Below are positions 491 to 61,655 of a DNA stretch of 64,000 nt, piece by piece (positions within the stretch are counted from its first letter, which is position 1; each line of letters begins with the position of its first letter). The notes below the pieces were generated by a model that was not told the DNA's origin, did not search any database, and saw only the letters and a program-made list of their open reading frames with translations. This stretch comes from a virus, in IMG/VR virus record IMGVR_UViG_3300046817_000745, positions 1 to 64,000 of that record. One strand, given 5' to 3'. The translations under genes and the position numbers were made by a program.

Positions 491-1368
491 AGCCGGGCCG
501 CAAGAACACAGACGCAGTCGAGGCGATCACCTTTTGGGTGGTCGGCGCCGGCCTGTGCACGATCCCCCTCCTGGTCTTCTTTTTCTCCTTCGGGAACGTC
601 GGTGCATTCGCGGAAAGCCTCGGCATGCCGCACCGCATCGCCTACCTCAACGGGCCGGCCATCGACCTGGCCGCCACCGTGTGCGTCGTCGCGTCCTCGT
701 ACCTCTCGACCAAGGATCTCTCTGAGAGCAGGCTGTGGCCGCTGCACCTGGCCACGTTCGTCTGCGGGCTGATGATGATCCTGCTGAACACCGCGGGCGC
801 ACTGCACACCCGGCAGTGGCGACTGGCATCCGTCGACTGCGTCGGCCCCGTCCTGCTGATCGGCTGGGGCGCCCTGGCGCCTTGGCTGTGGCGCAATCTG
901 ACCGAGGCGCGGCGCGGTGCTGCCGCCCCGGCAACCGGGCGCATTTCCGCCCGGCAACGAACGTCCACTGCCGCCCCGGAAATGCCGGCCGCACCCGGCA
1001 ACAGGGCGGCAGTGGACCCGGCAGCGGGCGGCAGTACTGCCGCCCCGGCATTGCCGCCCGCTGTCACTGACTTCCGGAAGCCTGCCGCCCCCCGGGGCGG
1101 AAACGTGCTCGAGTTCGCTGCCGCCCCTGGCCGGCGTTCCGCCCCCAACTGGGCGCAGCTCGCGCTGCCGCTGTGGAACCGCCATGTCGAGACGACCGGC
1201 CGCACGCCGACCGCCACAGAGCTGGCCGCCGCGCTGCGCCACACACATCCGAGCCTCGACGTACCCAAGAGCGACCGGTCTGAGCGCAACATCCGATCGG
1301 CCACCGAGGATCTCTGGCTGTCGACGGTGGCGGATGCACCGAAGACCAAGCAAGAGGAGGCCGGCTGA
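487..1368 (+). CDS. DUF2637 membrane protein (Spd/transfer-associated)
   Basis: The 293-residue product has about four hydrophobic helices in its first 135 residues (near 14-36, 52-70, 84-104 and 111-131), the DUF2637 pattern of actinomycete plasmids and integrative elements. A Pro/Ala-rich linker (about 140-215) joins them to a soluble C-terminal domain that contains LPLWNRHVE and TATELAAALR. Such proteins sit beside TraB translocases and are thought to work at the membrane in intermycelial DNA spread. GTG start overlaps the upstream stop (GTGA) and its own stop overlaps the next ATG, so the three genes are translationally coupled. The linker DNA carries repeated CTGCCGCCC motifs. Confidence 0.75.
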   Translation: MKPGRKNTDAVEAITFWVVGAGLCTIPLLVFFFSFGNVGAFAESLGMPHRIAYLNGPAIDLAATVCVVASSYLSTKDLSESRLWPLHLATFVCGLMMILLNTAGALHTRQWRLASVDCVGPVLLIGWGALAPWLWRNLTEARRGAAAPATGRISARQRTSTAAPEMPAAPGNRAAVDPAAGGSTAAPALPPAVTDFRKPAAPRGGNVLEFAAAPGRRSAPNWAQLALPLWNRHVETTGRTPTATELAAALRHTHPSLDVPKSDRSERNIRSATEDLWLSTVADAPKTKQEEAG

Positions 1369-3575
1369 TGCGCATGCGCCACGCCACACGCCACGCCACG
1401 CCACACGAAAACGTCGGCGCGATCGGGAATCTGGACGCCCAGGGCGCCGACCTTGTGCTGCGTGGCGTGGCGAGCGGATCGATCGATCCCTACGCGACCA
1501 GCGGCTACGCACAGACTGTCACGCAAACGATCGCCACGAGCCCCTACTCGGCAGTTCCCTCTCTCGCTGCCCTCGTGGCGGATCAGATCACCCCCGGCCT
1601 GGCGGACCGCACCGGCCCGGGAGCGTTCCAGAGACTGCAAGACTGGCACGTCATTCCTGCCGGTGTCATCGCCGGAGCACTCATCTGCGGTGCCGAATCG
1701 CACCACCAGCCGCTGCACGCATGGTTCGGTGGCGGGTTCACCGCAGCCGGGATCGCCGCCACCGCGGTCTACGGGGCCGTGCACGTCGCGCGCGCGATCA
1801 ACGGCGAGGACGAAGGCTCGGTCTCCGGCGGAGTACACGTGATCGGCCTGGGCGGCATCGGACTGGCGGCATTCGGCATCGCGTCGATTTCCGGTGCGAG
1901 TCCTCTCACTGCCGGGGTCGGCATCGGGCTGCTCACTGCCGGGTACTACGCCTGGTTCCAGACCCGGCACTCGCGGCTGCAGGATCAGCGCGGATTCCTG
2001 GTTGGCCACACTGCCGCTGCCACCCCGGCAGTCCTCGGAATGCCGGGCGGCATTGCCGCCCCCGTTGCCGCCCCCGTTGCCGGGCAGCTCGCATCCCATG
2101 AGGAGGCGATCGTGTATCGGGCGTTCGCCGACATGGGCATCGAACCGATCACCCTGCGCGCGTTCGAGCGCATCGACAAGGACGCTTTCAACGTGATCGT
2201 CGGGCTGCCCGGCAGCCGCGCGGACGACCCCGAGTCGGTGGTGCGCCGCAGTGAGACGCTCAAGAGCAACCTGCGCGCCACCCAGATCGCGGTCGAGGCC
2301 CTGCCGGACCAGGGTAACGAGGTCGCGCTCATGGCCCGGTTCGGTTCGGCCAGCCCGATCCTGGAAACCATCCCCTGGCCCGGACCGCAGACTGATGATG
2401 TGACCCAGCCTATTCGGATGGGGCTGACGCATTACGGTTCACCGGTCATGGTGCATTTCGCGAAAAGGCACACCCTGTTCGCCGGGAAGACCCGACGTGG
2501 AAAGTCCGCCGGTGTGCAGGTTGCCGTGTGTTCGATCGGGGCCACGAGAAACGGCCAGCTGTGGTTCCTCGATTTGAAGCCGGGTCAATTGGCGCTTGGT
2601 CCGTTCGAGCCGCTGTCCGCGCAGTTCGCCGACACCCTGCCCAAGGCCGCGCTGCTGATCGCCGCTGCGGTCGCCGCGATGGAGGAGAACGGAGAGATCC
2701 TCAAGGAAGAGCGCGAGCGCACCGGCGTCCCGGTGTGGGAGTGGGACCCGGCCGTGCACGGCTCCGGCATCTTCCTCGTCATCGACGAGCTCGCGGATTT
2801 CCTGCGCCTGGACCCCGAGATCTACGAGCAGTGGCTGCGCCTGATGCAGCTGGGCGCCGGCCTCGGCGTCTACATCATCGGCGCCACCCAGTCGCCGTCC
2901 GCGAAGGCGCTGGGCAACTCGACCGACGGCGGCAGCCAGTTCGGCGACATCTTCGGCTACCAGGCCAAGGGCGCCACCCAGGCCGGAGTCATCTTCGGGC
3001 AGGGCGCGTGGGGCGAGGGGTGGAAGCCGAGCGAGCGCAACCTGCCGCTGCAGGGCATGTTCCTGCTGCGCTCTCCTGAGCACACGCACCCGGTGGTCAG
3101 CCGCGGCGACTTCATCGAGCCGAACAGCGCGATGCGGATCGCCGCCGAGATCGCGGACGGCCAGCTCGCCCAGCTGCACCCGCGTACACAGGCCGCCGTC
3201 GACCGGGTGCTCGCCATGGGCGTCCCGGAGGGAACCGGCCCAGAAGGCGCCCGGCCCGCCGGAGGACAGCCGCAGGACGCACGTCCGTACGGGCGCCCGC
3301 GTCTGGTCACGCTCTACCCGGACGGTACGAAGGTCGACCCGCGGCACGAAGACATGTGGGACCTGCTCGGGTCGCTCGGCGAGCGCGGCGCGACCGTGGG
3401 CGATCTCTCCCTGGCCGCCAAGCGCGCCGGACATGAGCGATGCTCACTCGCCTGGGTGCGCGACCTGTGCAAGAACTGGCGCACCGCCGGGAACGTCATG
3501 GTCGAGGAGGGTAAGGAGCCGCGGTATTGGCGCGACGACGACACCCTCAAGCGGCGCGCCCGCCAGGAGGCATGA
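1368..3575 (+). CDS. FtsK/SpoIIIE-type DNA translocase (TraB-like), membrane anchored
   Basis: The 735-residue protein has a hydrophobic N-terminal part (about 95-200, three or four membrane helices) followed by a P-loop ATPase. The Walker A is GKTRRGKS near residue 374, with RR where GS is usual; Walker B is FLVIDELAD near 468. The region LGVYIIGATQSPSAK fits the sensor strand of FtsK proteins. The C-terminus (QPQDARPYG onward) resembles the DNA-reading winged helix seen in TraB. Family knowledge: a hexameric motor that moves double-stranded DNA, the sole essential transfer protein of Streptomyces plasmids. Position after GntR and DUF2637 genes supports transfer over cell-division FtsK. A phage role cannot be excluded. 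Confidence 0.82.
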   Translation: MRMRHATRHATPHENVGAIGNLDAQGADLVLRGVASGSIDPYATSGYAQTVTQTIATSPYSAVPSLAALVADQITPGLADRTGPGAFQRLQDWHVIPAGVIAGALICGAESHHQPLHAWFGGGFTAAGIAATAVYGAVHVARAINGEDEGSVSGGVHVIGLGGIGLAAFGIASISGASPLTAGVGIGLLTAGYYAWFQTRHSRLQDQRGFLVGHTAAATPAVLGMPGGIAAPVAAPVAGQLASHEEAIVYRAFADMGIEPITLRAFERIDKDAFNVIVGLPGSRADDPESVVRRSETLKSNLRATQIAVEALPDQGNEVALMARFGSASPILETIPWPGPQTDDVTQPIRMGLTHYGSPVMVHFAKRHTLFAGKTRRGKSAGVQVAVCSIGATRNGQLWFLDLKPGQLALGPFEPLSAQFADTLPKAALLIAAAVAAMEENGEILKEERERTGVPVWEWDPAVHGSGIFLVIDELADFLRLDPEIYEQWLRLMQLGAGLGVYIIGATQSPSAKALGNSTDGGSQFGDIFGYQAKGATQAGVIFGQGAWGEGWKPSERNLPLQGMFLLRSPEHTHPVVSRGDFIEPNSAMRIAAEIADGQLAQLHPRTQAAVDRVLAMGVPEGTGPEGARPAGGQPQDARPYGRPRLVTLYPDGTKVDPRHEDMWDLLGSLGERGATVGDLSLAAKRAGHERCSLAWVRDLCKNWRTAGNVMVEEGKEPRYWRDDDTLKRRARQEA

Positions 3576-57973: not shown

Positions 57974-58046
57974 GTGTTCCTCCCTGAACTAGTCCGCAGT
58001 TGAGTCTACAATAGGATCGGCACGAACGTTCAGGGAGGATTTGGCA
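57974..58046 (+). promoter_or_regulatory. Divergent promoter region between the replication operons
   Basis: TACAAT (58007-58012) faces right and TAGACT (58008-58003 on the minus strand) faces left, sharing the central TA. Each side ends in an extended ribosome-binding signal: GTTCAGGGAGG at 58028-58038 and its minus-strand copy at 57989-57979. The -10 boxes overlap, so the two start sites should compete for polymerase. Confidence 0.6.
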
Positions 58047-58976
58047 ATGGGCTGTCTTCATCAGGATTTCGCAGGAAGCGACCCCGTCGTACGCCAGCTC
58101 GGGATCGGCGCGGCCGCCTTGCGGTACCAGGGCCAGGGCTACGCGGTGCTCGCCCTGGCACGCGGCCGCAAACGCCCGCACCGGATTCTGGGTGACTCCG
58201 GCGGCGTGCACTGGGCGAGCATCGACCCGCAGGCCGCGAAGTGGAGCTGGAGCAGGGACCGCGCGGCCAACCTCGGCGTCGCGTGCGGGTCCCCATCTCG
58301 GCTGATCGTGGTCGACCTGGACGTCAAGGGCGGCCGCGACGGACCCGGGGAACTGACCCGGTTCATGGCGCAGTACCAGCTGGGCATCCGTGACGCCGCG
58401 GTGGCGGCCACCCCCTCGGGTGGCACGCACCTGTGGCTGCGCACCCCCGACGGGATGCGGGTACAGGGACGTCCCGGGATCCTGCCCGGCGTCGACATCC
58501 TCGGTGACGGCAACCTCGTGGTCGCCGCGCCCTCGATGGCGATGGTGTCCGGGCGCGGCGGCGAGCAGGTCCCGATCCCGTACCGGTGGACCGCCGGATG
58601 CTACTGCGCCGCCGGCCCGGTCCCGCCCTGGATGCTGGCGTGGATTGCCTCGGCCGGGCCGGGTATGGGCAGCGCCGGATCGGGCAGTGGCGGCGGCGGG
58701 GAGGAGGACGTCGACCTGGACGCGCTGCGCGAGCGCGGCGCGGCGGCCGGCACACGCAACCGCGAGCTGTACCGGGCCGCGTGCAAGCTGCACCGCACAC
58801 TGGCGCCGCAGGACGTGCTCGCGCAGCTCGAGGTGATGTGGCGGGCCGGAGACACGTCGGGGCTGCCGTGGCGCGAGGTGCTGACCCTCAACGAGAGCGC
58901 CCGCAAGTTCATCGACGGACAGCAGCAGCGCGAACGGGCGCTACGCGATGCGTGGGTCAGGAGTGGTATGCGATGA
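58047..58976 (+). CDS. Prim-Pol (archaeo-eukaryotic primase type) bifunctional primase
   Basis: From ATG 58047, eight bases after GGAGG, 309 residues. The prim-pol signature is clear: VVDLDVKGG (Asp90, Asp92), then TPSGGTHLWL (His128), GVDIL with Asp150 and VVAAPS. The C-terminal third (about 210-309) is helical and Gly-rich linked (GSAGSGSGGGGEEDVDLD), as in phage primases that bind a helicase. It would make primers for the family A polymerase. Confidence 0.82.
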   Translation: MGCLHQDFAGSDPVVRQLGIGAAALRYQGQGYAVLALARGRKRPHRILGDSGGVHWASIDPQAAKWSWSRDRAANLGVACGSPSRLIVVDLDVKGGRDGPGELTRFMAQYQLGIRDAAVAATPSGGTHLWLRTPDGMRVQGRPGILPGVDILGDGNLVVAAPSMAMVSGRGGEQVPIPYRWTAGCYCAAGPVPPWMLAWIASAGPGMGSAGSGSGGGGEEDVDLDALRERGAAAGTRNRELYRAACKLHRTLAPQDVLAQLEVMWRAGDTSGLPWREVLTLNESARKFIDGQQQRERALRDAWVRSGMR

Positions 58977-59169: not shown

Positions 59170-59220
59170 ATGCGCATCCTACCGCAAGCACCTGCAAACA
59201 CGACAAGGTCACGGCCGTGA
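59170..59220 (+). CDS. Possible 16-codon leader ORF before the helicase
   Basis: AAAAGGAA precedes an ATG at 59170; the frame ends in a TGA that overlaps the helicase GTG (GTGA at 59217-59220). The helicase itself has no ribosome-binding site, so translation may depend on this leader. The peptide has no hydrophobic or attenuator-like run. Confidence 0.35.
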   Translation: MRILPQAPANTTRSRP

Positions 59221-60620
59221 CCGGCGCACCGGCCGCGCCCGCAGCCGTCGGCGTGCTGATGGACATCCTGCACCGCGACTACTACGTGTCGGCCACCACG
59301 GACGGGCGCCTGTTCGCCGTGCGCCTGGACACGCCCTCGGTCATGATCCCGATGCGCGGATCCTCCGGCATGCGCCAGCGCCTGGCCGTGGACATGTACG
59401 TGCAGACCGGCCGGGCCGCGAACAGTGACGCGCTCACCTCGGTCCTGAACCTCGCCGAAGGCGCGGCCATGAGCCGCAAGCGGGTCACCCCGAATCTGCG
59501 GATCGCGCCCTGGCACGGGGCGGTGTACATCGACCTGGGCCGCACGGACGGCAAGGCGGTGGAGCTGAAGCCGGGAGCGTGGCGCGTGGTGGACCGCCCG
59601 CCCGTCCTGTTCACCCGCACGGCGCTCACCGCCGAGCTGCCGCTGCCGGCCGAGGAAGGCCGGATGGAAGAGGCACGGGACCTGATCAACGTGCGCTCGC
59701 CGGACGACTGGGCGCTGTACATCGCCTGCCGGGTCGCGTCCCTCTTCCCCGGCATCACGCACCCGATCGAGGTGATCTCGGGTCCGCCCGGGTCGGCGAA
59801 GACCGCGGCCACCAAGGTCACCTCCAACTGGATCGACGCCTCCCCCGCCATGCTCCCGGTCCCGCGGGACGGGCGCACCTGGGCGGCCATGGCCGGCGGG
59901 CGGTACGTGCTGCCGCTGGACAACGTGAGCGGTGTGGCGCGCTGGTGGTCGGACGCTCTGTGCAAGGCGGCGTCCGGGGACGGCTGGGTGGACCGCGCGC
60001 TGTACACCGACGGAGACCTGTACGTCGCCGCGTTCCAGTCTGTGATCATCCTGAACGGGATCACGCTGGGCGGGCTACAGGGCGACCTGGCCGACCGGCT
60101 CGCGGCGCACCACCTGTCCCGGATCACGGCGTACCGCTCCGATGATGAGGTCGCGGCCACCTGGGCGCTGGCGCATCCCGGGGCGCTGGCCTGGCTGCTG
60201 GACCGCGCCGCGGAGATCCTCGGAGACATGCAGTCCCTGCCGCAGATGACCGGGCCGGACCGCCTGATCCGCTTCTCACAGATCGTGCAGCTGATCGACC
60301 GGCGGTGGCACACCAACGCGCTGGGCGCCTGGCGGGCGGGGCGCATCGGCGTGCTCGAGGACATCGCCGAGGGCGACCTGGTCGCCGTCGCGCTGCGCCA
60401 GGCGGTGCACGCACCGTGGTACGGCACCTCGACCGAGCTGCTGCACCACCTGATGATGCACGGCGGTCTGCAGGACGAGGGCGGGAAGCGGTGGACGCCG
60501 CAGATGCTCAGTGAGCGGTTGGAGCGCACCGGCCAGGCTCTGGCGGCCATCGGCTGGCGGGTCGAGCGGGGTCGCGCGCACGGGGGCAAGCGCATGATCT
60601 GGGTCAACCCGCCGCAATGA
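59217..60620 (+). CDS. SF3/D5-like replicative helicase (P-loop ATPase)
   Basis: The 467-residue protein has Walker A GPPGSAKT (189-196), an Asp-rich Walker B-like LPLDNVS (near 235) and IILNGITL after it. The surrounding helices (WALYIACRVASLFPG; AHHLSRITAYRSDDE) fit the phage/plasmid SF3-D5 helicase class that unwinds origins together with prim-pol primases. Its position next to the prim-pol gene and upstream of the 60.7-kb dyad supports an initiator role. GTG start overlaps a leader ORF. Confidence 0.72.
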   Translation: MTGAPAAPAAVGVLMDILHRDYYVSATTDGRLFAVRLDTPSVMIPMRGSSGMRQRLAVDMYVQTGRAANSDALTSVLNLAEGAAMSRKRVTPNLRIAPWHGAVYIDLGRTDGKAVELKPGAWRVVDRPPVLFTRTALTAELPLPAEEGRMEEARDLINVRSPDDWALYIACRVASLFPGITHPIEVISGPPGSAKTAATKVTSNWIDASPAMLPVPRDGRTWAAMAGGRYVLPLDNVSGVARWWSDALCKAASGDGWVDRALYTDGDLYVAAFQSVIILNGITLGGLQGDLADRLAAHHLSRITAYRSDDEVAATWALAHPGALAWLLDRAAEILGDMQSLPQMTGPDRLIRFSQIVQLIDRRWHTNALGAWRAGRIGVLEDIAEGDLVAVALRQAVHAPWYGTSTELLHHLMMHGGLQDEGGKRWTPQMLSERLERTGQALAAIGWRVERGRAHGGKRMIWVNPPQ

Positions 60621-60639
60621 GTCAAGACGTTGAGTAAGT

Positions 60640-60754
60640 GGTGACGCGGTGACGAGGGTGACGGCTTTTTCTACTACCATCTGCTTCCCCCTCTTAAAAT
60701 CCTAGGGACAGATAGTAGTAGGGAGAGGCGTCACCAGCGTCACCGCTCGTCACC
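60640..60754. other. Origin-like inverted-repeat array (dyad)
   Basis: Three GGTGACG (60640, 60648, 60657) face three CGTCACC (60729, 60738, 60748). Inside, CTACTACCATCTG (60671-60683) faces CAGATAGTAGTAG (60709-60721) with one mismatch. The centre is A+T-rich (CTCTTAAAATCCTAGG). All pairs are centred near 60696. It lies in a 390-base noncoding gap right after the helicase gene, as expected for a replication origin or a regulatory array. Confidence 0.6.
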
Positions 60755-60790
60755 TAACGATCTTGGAAACAGATGCGGCATGCGAGAGAA

Positions 60791-60837
60791 GCGCCACCGA
60801 CAGATGTGGAACGCCAAAAGTGCGCCACCGACAGATG
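60791..60837 (+). repeat. Two 16-bp direct repeats
   Basis: GCGCCACCGACAGATG at 60791-60806 and 60822-60837, 31 bases apart (three helical turns). CAGATGTGGA at 60801 also recurs inverted at 60881-60890. They lie beside the dyad and may be iterons or initiator sites. Confidence 0.55.
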
Positions 60838-61009
60838 ATGCTGTGTTGGACCTCGCCACCGGGTGACGCCTATTTGTAGATCCACATCTGCCCCGAACTG
60901 AGTTTCAGATGATCTCTGCGGGAACTGCGTCGTTGCAGGTCGTGGAGTTGCGTTGTTCGGTTCTTTGAATATGATCTTGAAACCCTATGGAAGGGTGATC
61001 TTGCGGACG

Positions 61010-61023
61010 TATGATGACCGACA
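61010..61023 (+). promoter_or_regulatory. Leaderless promoter candidate
   Basis: TATGAT (61010-61015), seven bases, then ATG at 61023 with no ribosome-binding site. The spacing puts transcription start at the ATG. Confidence 0.45.
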
Positions 61024-61655
61024 TGGACGTACCCCCACGTGCGATGGACGAGATCATGGCCGCCATGATCGGACCGGCACCGGATCACCAGTGCCGCGGG
61101 ACCAACCGGGGCGGAGGGCCATGCGGCAGGGGTCCGGTGCCCGGCGCGACGGTGTGCGCGATGCACGGGGGCAAGGCGCCCGCCGTGGTCGCCAAGGCCG
61201 AGATACGCCTGGCGGAGCGCGAGGCGGTGATGGTCGCGAGGCGCGCCGTGCTCGACCTGACCGACGCCGAGTTGATCGAGCAGTTCGGCAATCCCGGCGA
61301 GACGCTGCAGTGGATCATCGCCATGAGCCGGGCCCTGGCGTCCCGGCTGCACGTCGCGGTCGCCGATCTGTCCGACCTGGTGTATACCGACGCGTTCGGC
61401 AACATTCACGTGCGCGGAGAAGTCAATGCGCTGATGAAGGCGATAGCCCTGGCCGGCTCGCACGCGGAGCGGGCCCTGCGCCTGAACCTGGATCACCGCG
61501 GTCTGCAGGTGCAGGAGCGGCAGCTGGCGCTGCTCGACCGCGCGCTGGACACCGCCCTGGCGCAGGCCGGGCTGGACGCCGACACCCAGCGCACCGTGCG
61601 CCGCGTGCTGCGCACCGAGATCCTGGCCGCAGACGAGACAGCAGACGCGAATTGA
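61023..61655 (+). CDS. CxxHGG zinc-site protein, possible terminase small subunit
   Basis: From ATG 61023 the protein has 210 residues. The N-terminus holds Cys24, Cys34, Cys45 and His48 in CRGTNRGGGPC and TVCAMHGG, a motif I associate with small packaging/terminase-like proteins of phages. The middle is helical (LIEQFGNPGETLQWIIAM) and the end is coiled-coil-like (ERQLALLDRALDTALAQAG). If it is the small terminase it lies 47 kb from the large subunit in this map. The long frame at 61011 adds only four residues. Confidence 0.6.
   Translation: MDVPPRAMDEIMAAMIGPAPDHQCRGTNRGGGPCGRGPVPGATVCAMHGGKAPAVVAKAEIRLAEREAVMVARRAVLDLTDAELIEQFGNPGETLQWIIAMSRALASRLHVAVADLSDLVYTDAFGNIHVRGEVNALMKAIALAGSHAERALRLNLDHRGLQVQERQLALLDRALDTALAQAGLDADTQRTVRRVLRTEILAADETADAN

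What the first reader, a model, noticed from the sequence alone, without database searches (positions are those of the whole stretch)
60621..61009. 115-bp nested dyad with iteron-like repeats: probable origin
In the largest noncoding gap, three GGTGACG repeats mirror three CGTCACC repeats around an inner 13-bp inverted repeat and an A+T-rich core, all centred near 60696. Two 16-bp direct repeats 31 bases apart follow. The prim-pol and SF3 helicase genes lie just upstream. This is the kind of layout expected for an initiator-bound origin.
Basis: partly seen in the sequence, partly recalled or inferred. Interest (0 to 1): 0.78.

Follow-up and report, generated by a model that had tools for sequence, protein, structure and literature searches.

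The report
Phage replication origin beside its helicase
The repeats are almost certainly the start site where this uncultured actinobacterial phage begins copying its DNA, of a kind known from Streptomyces plasmids and staphylococcal islands, and the same seven-letter repeat turns out to mark such start sites beside related helicase genes in many other viruses.

Summary
Three GGTGACG and three mirrored CGTCACC form the strongest inverted repeat in the 64-kb window and enclose a 65-bp core with an inner 12/13-bp inverted repeat. There are seven GGTGACG copies in the gap against 0.1 expected.

The origin reading is well supported. Directly upstream lie a Prim-Pol gene and a 467-aa ATPase (called RepA here) whose model matches the SaPI5 primase-helicase (Z 20). 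RepA is 34% identical to a protein of Streptomyces plasmid pFP11, which carries the same kind of nested dyad downstream. About 300 homologues sit in Streptomyces plasmids and integrative elements; 93 gaps downstream hold 778 TGACGCA against 9 expected.

Of these, 59 were non-coding dyads against 1 of 25 for a shuffled control. Of the 59, 40 start within 60 bp of a large ORF's 3' end, and of 28 adjacent ORFs tested, 23 match the SF3-helicase domain DUF5906.

Likely mechanism: RepA multimers bind both iteron clusters, melt the core, and Prim-Pol primes bidirectional synthesis. Binding and replication are inferred, not shown. This is a new member of a known kind. The broadly shared iteron is the interesting part.

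The parts
58041..58976 (+). Prim-Pol primase/polymerase gene (RepB-like)
   Evidence: PF09250 E 9.8e-27; the start codon is uncertain
59217..60620 (+). 467-aa initiator helicase (RepA/RepPP-like): N-terminal part, ATPase core with GPPGSAKT Walker A, C-terminal winged-helix-like domain (about residues 390-467)
   Evidence: 34% identical to the pFP11 protein over 95%; model pLDDT 83.9; SaPI5 primase-helicase Z 20.0
60640..60663 (+). left iteron cluster, 3 x GGTGACG, steps 8 and 9 bp
60671..60683 (+). inner inverted repeat, left arm CTACTACCATCTG
60684..60708 (.). core: pyrimidine tract, A+T stretch and TCCTAG (CTTCCCCCTCTTAAAATCCTAGGGA), candidate melting site
   Evidence: same core pattern in 57 of 80 homologous gaps, 0 in 1.21 Mb elsewhere in those loci, once in the window
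60709..60721 (-). inner inverted repeat, right arm CAGATAGTAGTAG
60729..60754 (-). right iteron cluster, 3 x CGTCACC, steps 9 and 10 bp
60769..60868 (.). accessory array with 31-bp period: ACAGATG x3 (60769, 60800, 60831), variant iterons CGCCACC x3 (60792, 60823, 60854) and GGTGACG at 60862
   Evidence: 30-31-bp iteron steps also in L003 and L007
60935..60941 (+). GCAGGTC, one copy of a second motif enriched in homologous origins
   Evidence: GCAGGTCA 115 seen vs 15 expected in 93 gaps; the window has only the 7-mer GCAGGTC
61011..61655 (+). downstream gene of unknown function (phrog_3678; HGGxSTG-like domain); a similar coding start follows the gap in the relatives read

Best explanation
The segment 60621-61009, with the 115-bp dyad 60640-60754 as its core, is the phage's replication origin. 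RepA, the SF3-like initiator helicase encoded directly upstream, binds the three iterons on each side of the core in opposite orientation, probably through its C-terminal winged-helix-like domain. Two RepA multimers assemble facing each other, melt the pyrimidine/A+T core and act as the two fork helicases. The adjacent Prim-Pol makes primers on the exposed strands, giving bidirectional theta-type replication. The 31-bp array to the right is an accessory binding array that probably tunes initiation or couples origins. Shown here: the repeats, their non-randomness, conservation of the layout beside homologous initiators, and the initiator's predicted fold. Inferred: binding, melting, priming, direction and the role of the 31-bp array.
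For: Dyad statistics. Relatives L003-L007 (73-81% identical RepA) keep iterons in the same gap; a clear nested dyad is present in L003 and L005, with iteron sequences that differ between phages (GGTGACG, GCGGACG, GCTGACG). The homologous proteins of Streptomyces plasmids (34% pFP11) have the nested dyad downstream in pFP11, pSTS2, NBC_01216 and pFRL5. Downstream gaps of 93 homologues hold 778 TGACGCA vs 9.2 expected. The literature reports RepA footprinting on a ~105-bp inverted repeat of the iteron region and bidirectional replication for pWTY27, with iteron binding for pFP11 RepA. Fold: SaPI5 primase-helicase Z 20.0, D5/E5 Z 14-19. SaPI Rep is reported to read iterons downstream of its gene, apparently as two hexamers. 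For pRN1 a ~100-bp stem-loop downstream of the primase-SF3 gene is required for replication. DNA-only dyad search in IMG/VR: 59 of 119 non-coding dyads vs 1 of 25 control; 40 of 59 within 60 bp of a large ORF 3' end vs 14 of 295 control; 23 of 28 adjacent ORFs match DUF5906 and 18 match D5_N.
Against: No replication, binding or read-depth data. No GC-skew inflection at 60.7 kb. In L006 and L007 iterons are present but no strong gapless dyad was found. The iterons of the nearest relatives are not identical, so the sequence match to distant plasmids could be partly convergent. The paper that characterised pFP11 itself is not held, so equating its RepA with the homologue found here is an inference. 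The phage also carries a family A polymerase and could use other origins.
Confidence: 0.88

Rival explanations
1. A transcription terminator or attenuator for the RepA transcript: the long hairpin forms in RNA and stops transcription before the 61011 gene.
For: The dyad starts 20 bp after the RepA stop codon and folds very stably as RNA.
Against: No terminator-like site was found and there is no T-run after the outer stem. In L003 and in the Streptomyces elements a separate short GC hairpin follows the rep stop and the iteron region lies beyond it. In L005-L007 and pFP11 the array lies hundreds of bases beyond rep, after another gene. A terminator needs no repeated heptamer or 31-bp array.
Confidence: 0.05
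2. An operator region: a phage repressor or RepA itself binds the repeats to control the 61011 operon, without being an origin.
For: The gap lies between two genes on the same strand; repeated inverted heptamers suit a regulator. Autoregulation by RepA could coexist with origin function.
Against: Dyads found by DNA pattern sit at the 3' ends of SF3 helicase genes in unrelated viruses, which an operator for unrelated downstream genes would not do. No sigma-70-like promoter was found there (other promoter types are not covered).
Confidence: 0.05
3. A single-strand or hairpin origin: the dyad extrudes as a cruciform and is used for rolling-circle or stem-loop-recognised initiation.
For: DNA folding z -8.2. 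The pWTY27 authors proposed recognition of a folded stem-loop, and pRN1 needs stem symmetry.
Against: In the Streptomyces integrative elements the iterons lie on one side of the core, without the flanking mirrored cluster. No rolling-circle initiator was identified among the genes examined. pWTY27 replication is reported as bidirectional.
Confidence: 0.08

Closest known systems
Streptomyces theta-plasmid Prim-Pol/RepA replicons (pFP11, pWTY27)
   Same: Prim-Pol gene next to an ATPase gene homologous to RepA (pFP11); iterons and a ~100-bp nested inverted repeat with A+T-rich core near the rep gene; RepA reported to bind the region.
   Different: Here on a 73-kb tailed-phage contig with terminase, portal, capsid and tape-measure genes; dyad only 20 bp after rep; iteron GGTGACG instead of GGGACGCAC (pFP11) or GTGGGAAC (pWTY27). 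The pWTY27 RepA sequence itself could not be compared.
RepPP modules of actinomycete integrative and conjugative elements (SLP1 SCO4617/SCO4618 type)
   Same: Same two-gene Prim-Pol plus Rep layout; homologous Streptomyces gaps share the CGTCACC iteron and the pyrimidine/A+T/TCCTAR core.
   Different: Those have one-sided iteron arrays and, in L041, an integrase-like gene beside them; the phage has iterons on both sides and no tyrosine integrase was found. SCO4618 itself was not compared.
SaPI Rep helicases and their origins
   Same: Best structural match (SaPI5, Z 20.0); iterons directly downstream of the helicase gene.
   Different: About 12% sequence identity; primase is a separate gene; iteron sequence not compared here.
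Sulfolobus plasmid pRN1 origin
   Same: ~100-bp inverted structure just downstream of a primase-SF3 helicase gene.
   Different: Archaeal, primase and helicase fused, stem-loop without the iteron clusters seen here.
D5-type (DUF5906/D5_N) helicase origins in phages
   Same: GGTGACG dyads abut such genes in many IMG/VR contigs.
   Different: Sequence similarity to RepA only at profile level (93% probability, ATPase core). Four named phages examined lack GGTGACG.

Membership tests
Streptomyces Prim-Pol/RepPP replicon (pFP11/pWTY27/SLP1 type) | Prim-Pol gene next to a homologous RepA/RepPP gene | tested here: met
   PF09250 E 9.8e-27; RepA 34% over 95% to the pFP11 protein
Streptomyces Prim-Pol/RepPP replicon (pFP11/pWTY27/SLP1 type) | iterons and long inverted repeat in the non-coding region by the rep gene | tested here: met
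Streptomyces Prim-Pol/RepPP replicon (pFP11/pWTY27/SLP1 type) | TGCGTCA iteron spelling common in Streptomyces integrative elements | tested here: inconclusive
   the window shares the CGTCACC part (7 copies) but has no TGACGCA
Streptomyces Prim-Pol/RepPP replicon (pFP11/pWTY27/SLP1 type) | Rep protein binds the iterons; locus replicates autonomously and bidirectionally | not testable with these tools
   reported for pWTY27 and pFP11 (PMC3583192), not for this phage
SF3/D5-like initiator helicase | SF3/D5 helicase fold | tested here: met
   predicted model: SaPI5 7ola Z 20.0, rmsd 4.5, 373 aligned; D5/E5 Z 14-19; papillomavirus E1 Z 11
SF3/D5-like initiator helicase | recognised by curated D5_N, DUF5906 or VapE profiles | tested here: inconclusive
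   the phage protein has no Pfam match; plasmid homologues match VapE only weakly (E 0.02-0.05); profile-profile with D5-type helicases 93%, E 3e-7
SF3/D5-like initiator helicase | ATP-dependent unwinding | not testable with these tools
   needs purified protein
SaPI-type origin | short iterons directly downstream of the helicase gene | tested here: met
   definition from PMC7581432
DnaA-dependent iteron plasmid origin | DnaA boxes next to the iterons | tested here: not met
   no TTNTNCACA within one mismatch on either strand of 60621-61010
intrinsic terminator | GC stem followed by T-run | tested here: not met
   none in 60400-61200

The most novel reading that the evidence does not exclude
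GGTGACG is a shared origin code. SF3-type initiator helicases as far apart as this actinophage's RepA and D5-type helicases of phages with about 41-72% GC genomes recognise the same heptamer, arranged as facing clusters about 65 bp apart immediately 3' of the helicase gene. If so, origins of very many uncultured phages and integrative elements can be read directly from sequence, and iteron switches among close relatives (GGTGACG, GCGGACG, GCTGACG) expose the recognition residues of the C-terminal domain.
Probability: 0.55. Interest if true: 0.68.

Novelty: new member of a known kind. Interest (0 to 1): 0.52.

Why it matters
It locates the origin of an uncultured 73-kb phage group and ties it to the Streptomyces plasmid and integrative-element replicon, so one replication module is shared by phages, plasmids and conjugative elements. 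More broadly, a short DNA pattern found SF3 helicase origins across many viruses without using protein information. That makes origin prediction and the evolution of initiator-origin specificity directly testable.

Tried and rejected
Blastn of the gap against phage records found nothing. The first AlphaFold run with five close sequences was poor (pLDDT 49.6) and was not used; a 58-sequence alignment fixed it. Profile searches of PDB sequences gave only P-loop noise. GC skew was tried as origin evidence and gave none. A first genome-contig scan with close relatives only found no relatives; the wider alignment found 295. Gapless inverted-repeat scores downstream of the Streptomyces homologues often picked up the rep terminator hairpin, so heptamer enrichment was used instead. 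pWTY27 itself is not in the collections under its GenBank accession, and the pFP11 and SaPI helicase papers are not held. Terminator, pure operator and DnaA-type origin were considered and rejected. The core pattern was written after seeing the window and about 17 homologues, so its match in the window is partly post hoc; its absence from 1.21 Mb of flanking DNA is not. The 28 ORFs were chosen for having a 3' end facing a dyad, and near-identical sequences recur among them (L115 and L175 overlap), so they are not 28 independent cases.

Full report
OBSERVATION. GGTGACG is at 60640, 60648 and 60657, and CGTCACC at 60729, 60738 and 60748. Between them lie the inner arms 60671-60683 and 60709-60721 (12 of 13 paired) and a 25-bp core CTTCCCCCTCTTAAAATCCTAGGGA. 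The dyad is the best gapless inverted repeat in the 64 kb (20.5 against 14.5 for the next), exceeds 300 of 300 dinucleotide shuffles, and the gap has 7 GGTGACG against 0.1 expected. To its right is a 31-bp-periodic array of ACAGATG and the one-mismatch iteron CGCCACC, ending in another GGTGACG at 60862.

CONTEXT. The window is part of a 72,872-bp IMG/VR virus record with large terminase, portal, major capsid and tape-measure genes, a family A DNA polymerase and an SNF2-type helicase. No tyrosine integrase was found. Upstream of the dyad are a Prim-Pol gene (58041-58976) and a 467-aa ATPase gene (59217-60620), here called RepA.

RELATIVES. Five IMG/VR loci encode RepA at 73-81% identity; two of them are identical over the stretch compared. 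All have iteron arrays between RepA and a similar downstream gene, but the iteron differs: GGTGACG in this phage and L005, GCGGACG in L003/L004, GCTGACG in L006, and a shorter GTGCGTCA in L007. L003 and L005 show a clear nested dyad; L006 and L007 do not by the gapless test. More distant homologues lie on Streptomyces plasmids, including pFP11 (34% identity), next to Prim-Pol genes. pFP11 has a 36-bp-arm nested dyad with an A+T/purine-rich 30-bp core, and pSTS2, NBC_01216 and pFRL5 have similar ones. A scan of bacterial genomes found 295 homologues; the 80 kept are all Streptomyces or close relatives. L041, inspected in detail, has a tyrosine-integrase-like gene beyond the iterons, fitting the integrative elements with Prim-Pol plus RepPP modules described in PMC3218068. 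In 93 downstream gaps TGACGCA occurs 778 times against 9.2 expected (85 gaps), and GGTGACG 458 against 62. A pyrimidine/A+T/TCCTAR core precedes the iterons in 57 of 80 of these and is absent from the other 1.21 Mb; in the window it occurs once, inside the dyad. In those elements the first GCGTCA follows 12-13 bp after the core, in the window 22 bp, about one helical turn more.

INITIATOR FOLD. A 58-sequence alignment gave a model of mean pLDDT 83.9. The best solved structures are the SaPI5 primase-helicase (Z 20.0, 373 residues, 12% identity), poxvirus D5/E5, ASFV PrimPol, NrS-1 and PriRep1. Single-sequence Pfam search does not see this, but profile-profile comparison with D5-type helicases gives 93% probability over the ATPase core.

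DNA-ONLY TEST. The pattern GGTGACG-N1-6-GGTGACG-N45-75-CGTCACC was run against IMG/VR with no protein information. A shuffled heptamer of the same composition gave 25 matches, one of that quality. The 59 have tandem steps mainly of 10 bp and a median core of 65 bp, the same as here, although the pattern itself limits the core to 45-75 bp. Forty of the 59 start within 60 bp of the 3' end of an ORF of at least 300 aa, against 14 of 295 random positions. Of 28 such adjacent ORFs, 23 match DUF5906, 18 D5_N, 5 Pox_D5, 4 the NrS-1 polymerase domain and 3 VapE. Four named phages with related helicases were read: PSA (Listeria), NatCom_2329 (Ruminococcus), Javan105 (Streptococcus) and TPDSL_ph1 (Terrisporobacter). 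All four lack GGTGACG; the first three show, by eye, inverted repeats around an A+T-rich core just 3' of the helicase gene, with other iterons.

MECHANISM. Published work on this kind of replicon reports RepA footprints on a ~105-bp inverted repeat, with bidirectional replication (pWTY27); origin recognition by the C-terminal domain of SaPI Rep on downstream iterons, apparently as two hexamers; and the need for a ~100-bp structure downstream of the pRN1 primase-helicase gene. By analogy RepA should load on both iteron clusters, melt the core and run outward, with Prim-Pol priming. No DnaA box is present, fitting a self-sufficient initiator. None of these steps was tested here for this phage.

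NOVELTY. This is a new phage member of the known SF3-helicase/downstream-iteron origin kind. What I did not find described is the recurrence of GGTGACG across such divergent helicases; one search of the held library for GGTGACG with phage and origin gave nothing relevant, which is weak evidence of novelty because most subscription papers are missing.

Noticed in passing
L005 7460-7813 (-), L006 7508-7861 (-), L007 7564-7953 (-): A 117-129-aa protein encoded between RepA and the origin in three relatives is homologous to the C-terminal ~77 residues of RepA (35% identity, E 2e-5; own-genome hit 60372-60614). It could be a stand-alone origin-binding regulator. No separate copy was found in the window's phage.
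   Followed up: partly
window 57978-57989 and 58028-58039: Perfect 12-bp inverted repeat TCCTCCCTGAAC / GTTCAGGGAGGA between the divergent genes just upstream of Prim-Pol, a candidate operator.
   Followed up: no
L019 (Microbacterium phage Zeta1847 gp37): A RepA-like ATPase (31% identity) lies in one 870-aa protein with a TOPRIM primase domain, so this helicase pairs with two unrelated primase types.
   Followed up: no
gaps downstream of rep in 93 homologues; window 60935-60941: Second motif GCAGGTCA enriched in these origins (115 vs 15 expected); function unknown.
   Followed up: partly
window 1368-3575: FtsK/SpoIIIE-like gene on a tailed-phage contig, a type also used for DNA transfer by Streptomyces plasmids and integrative elements.
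   Followed up: no
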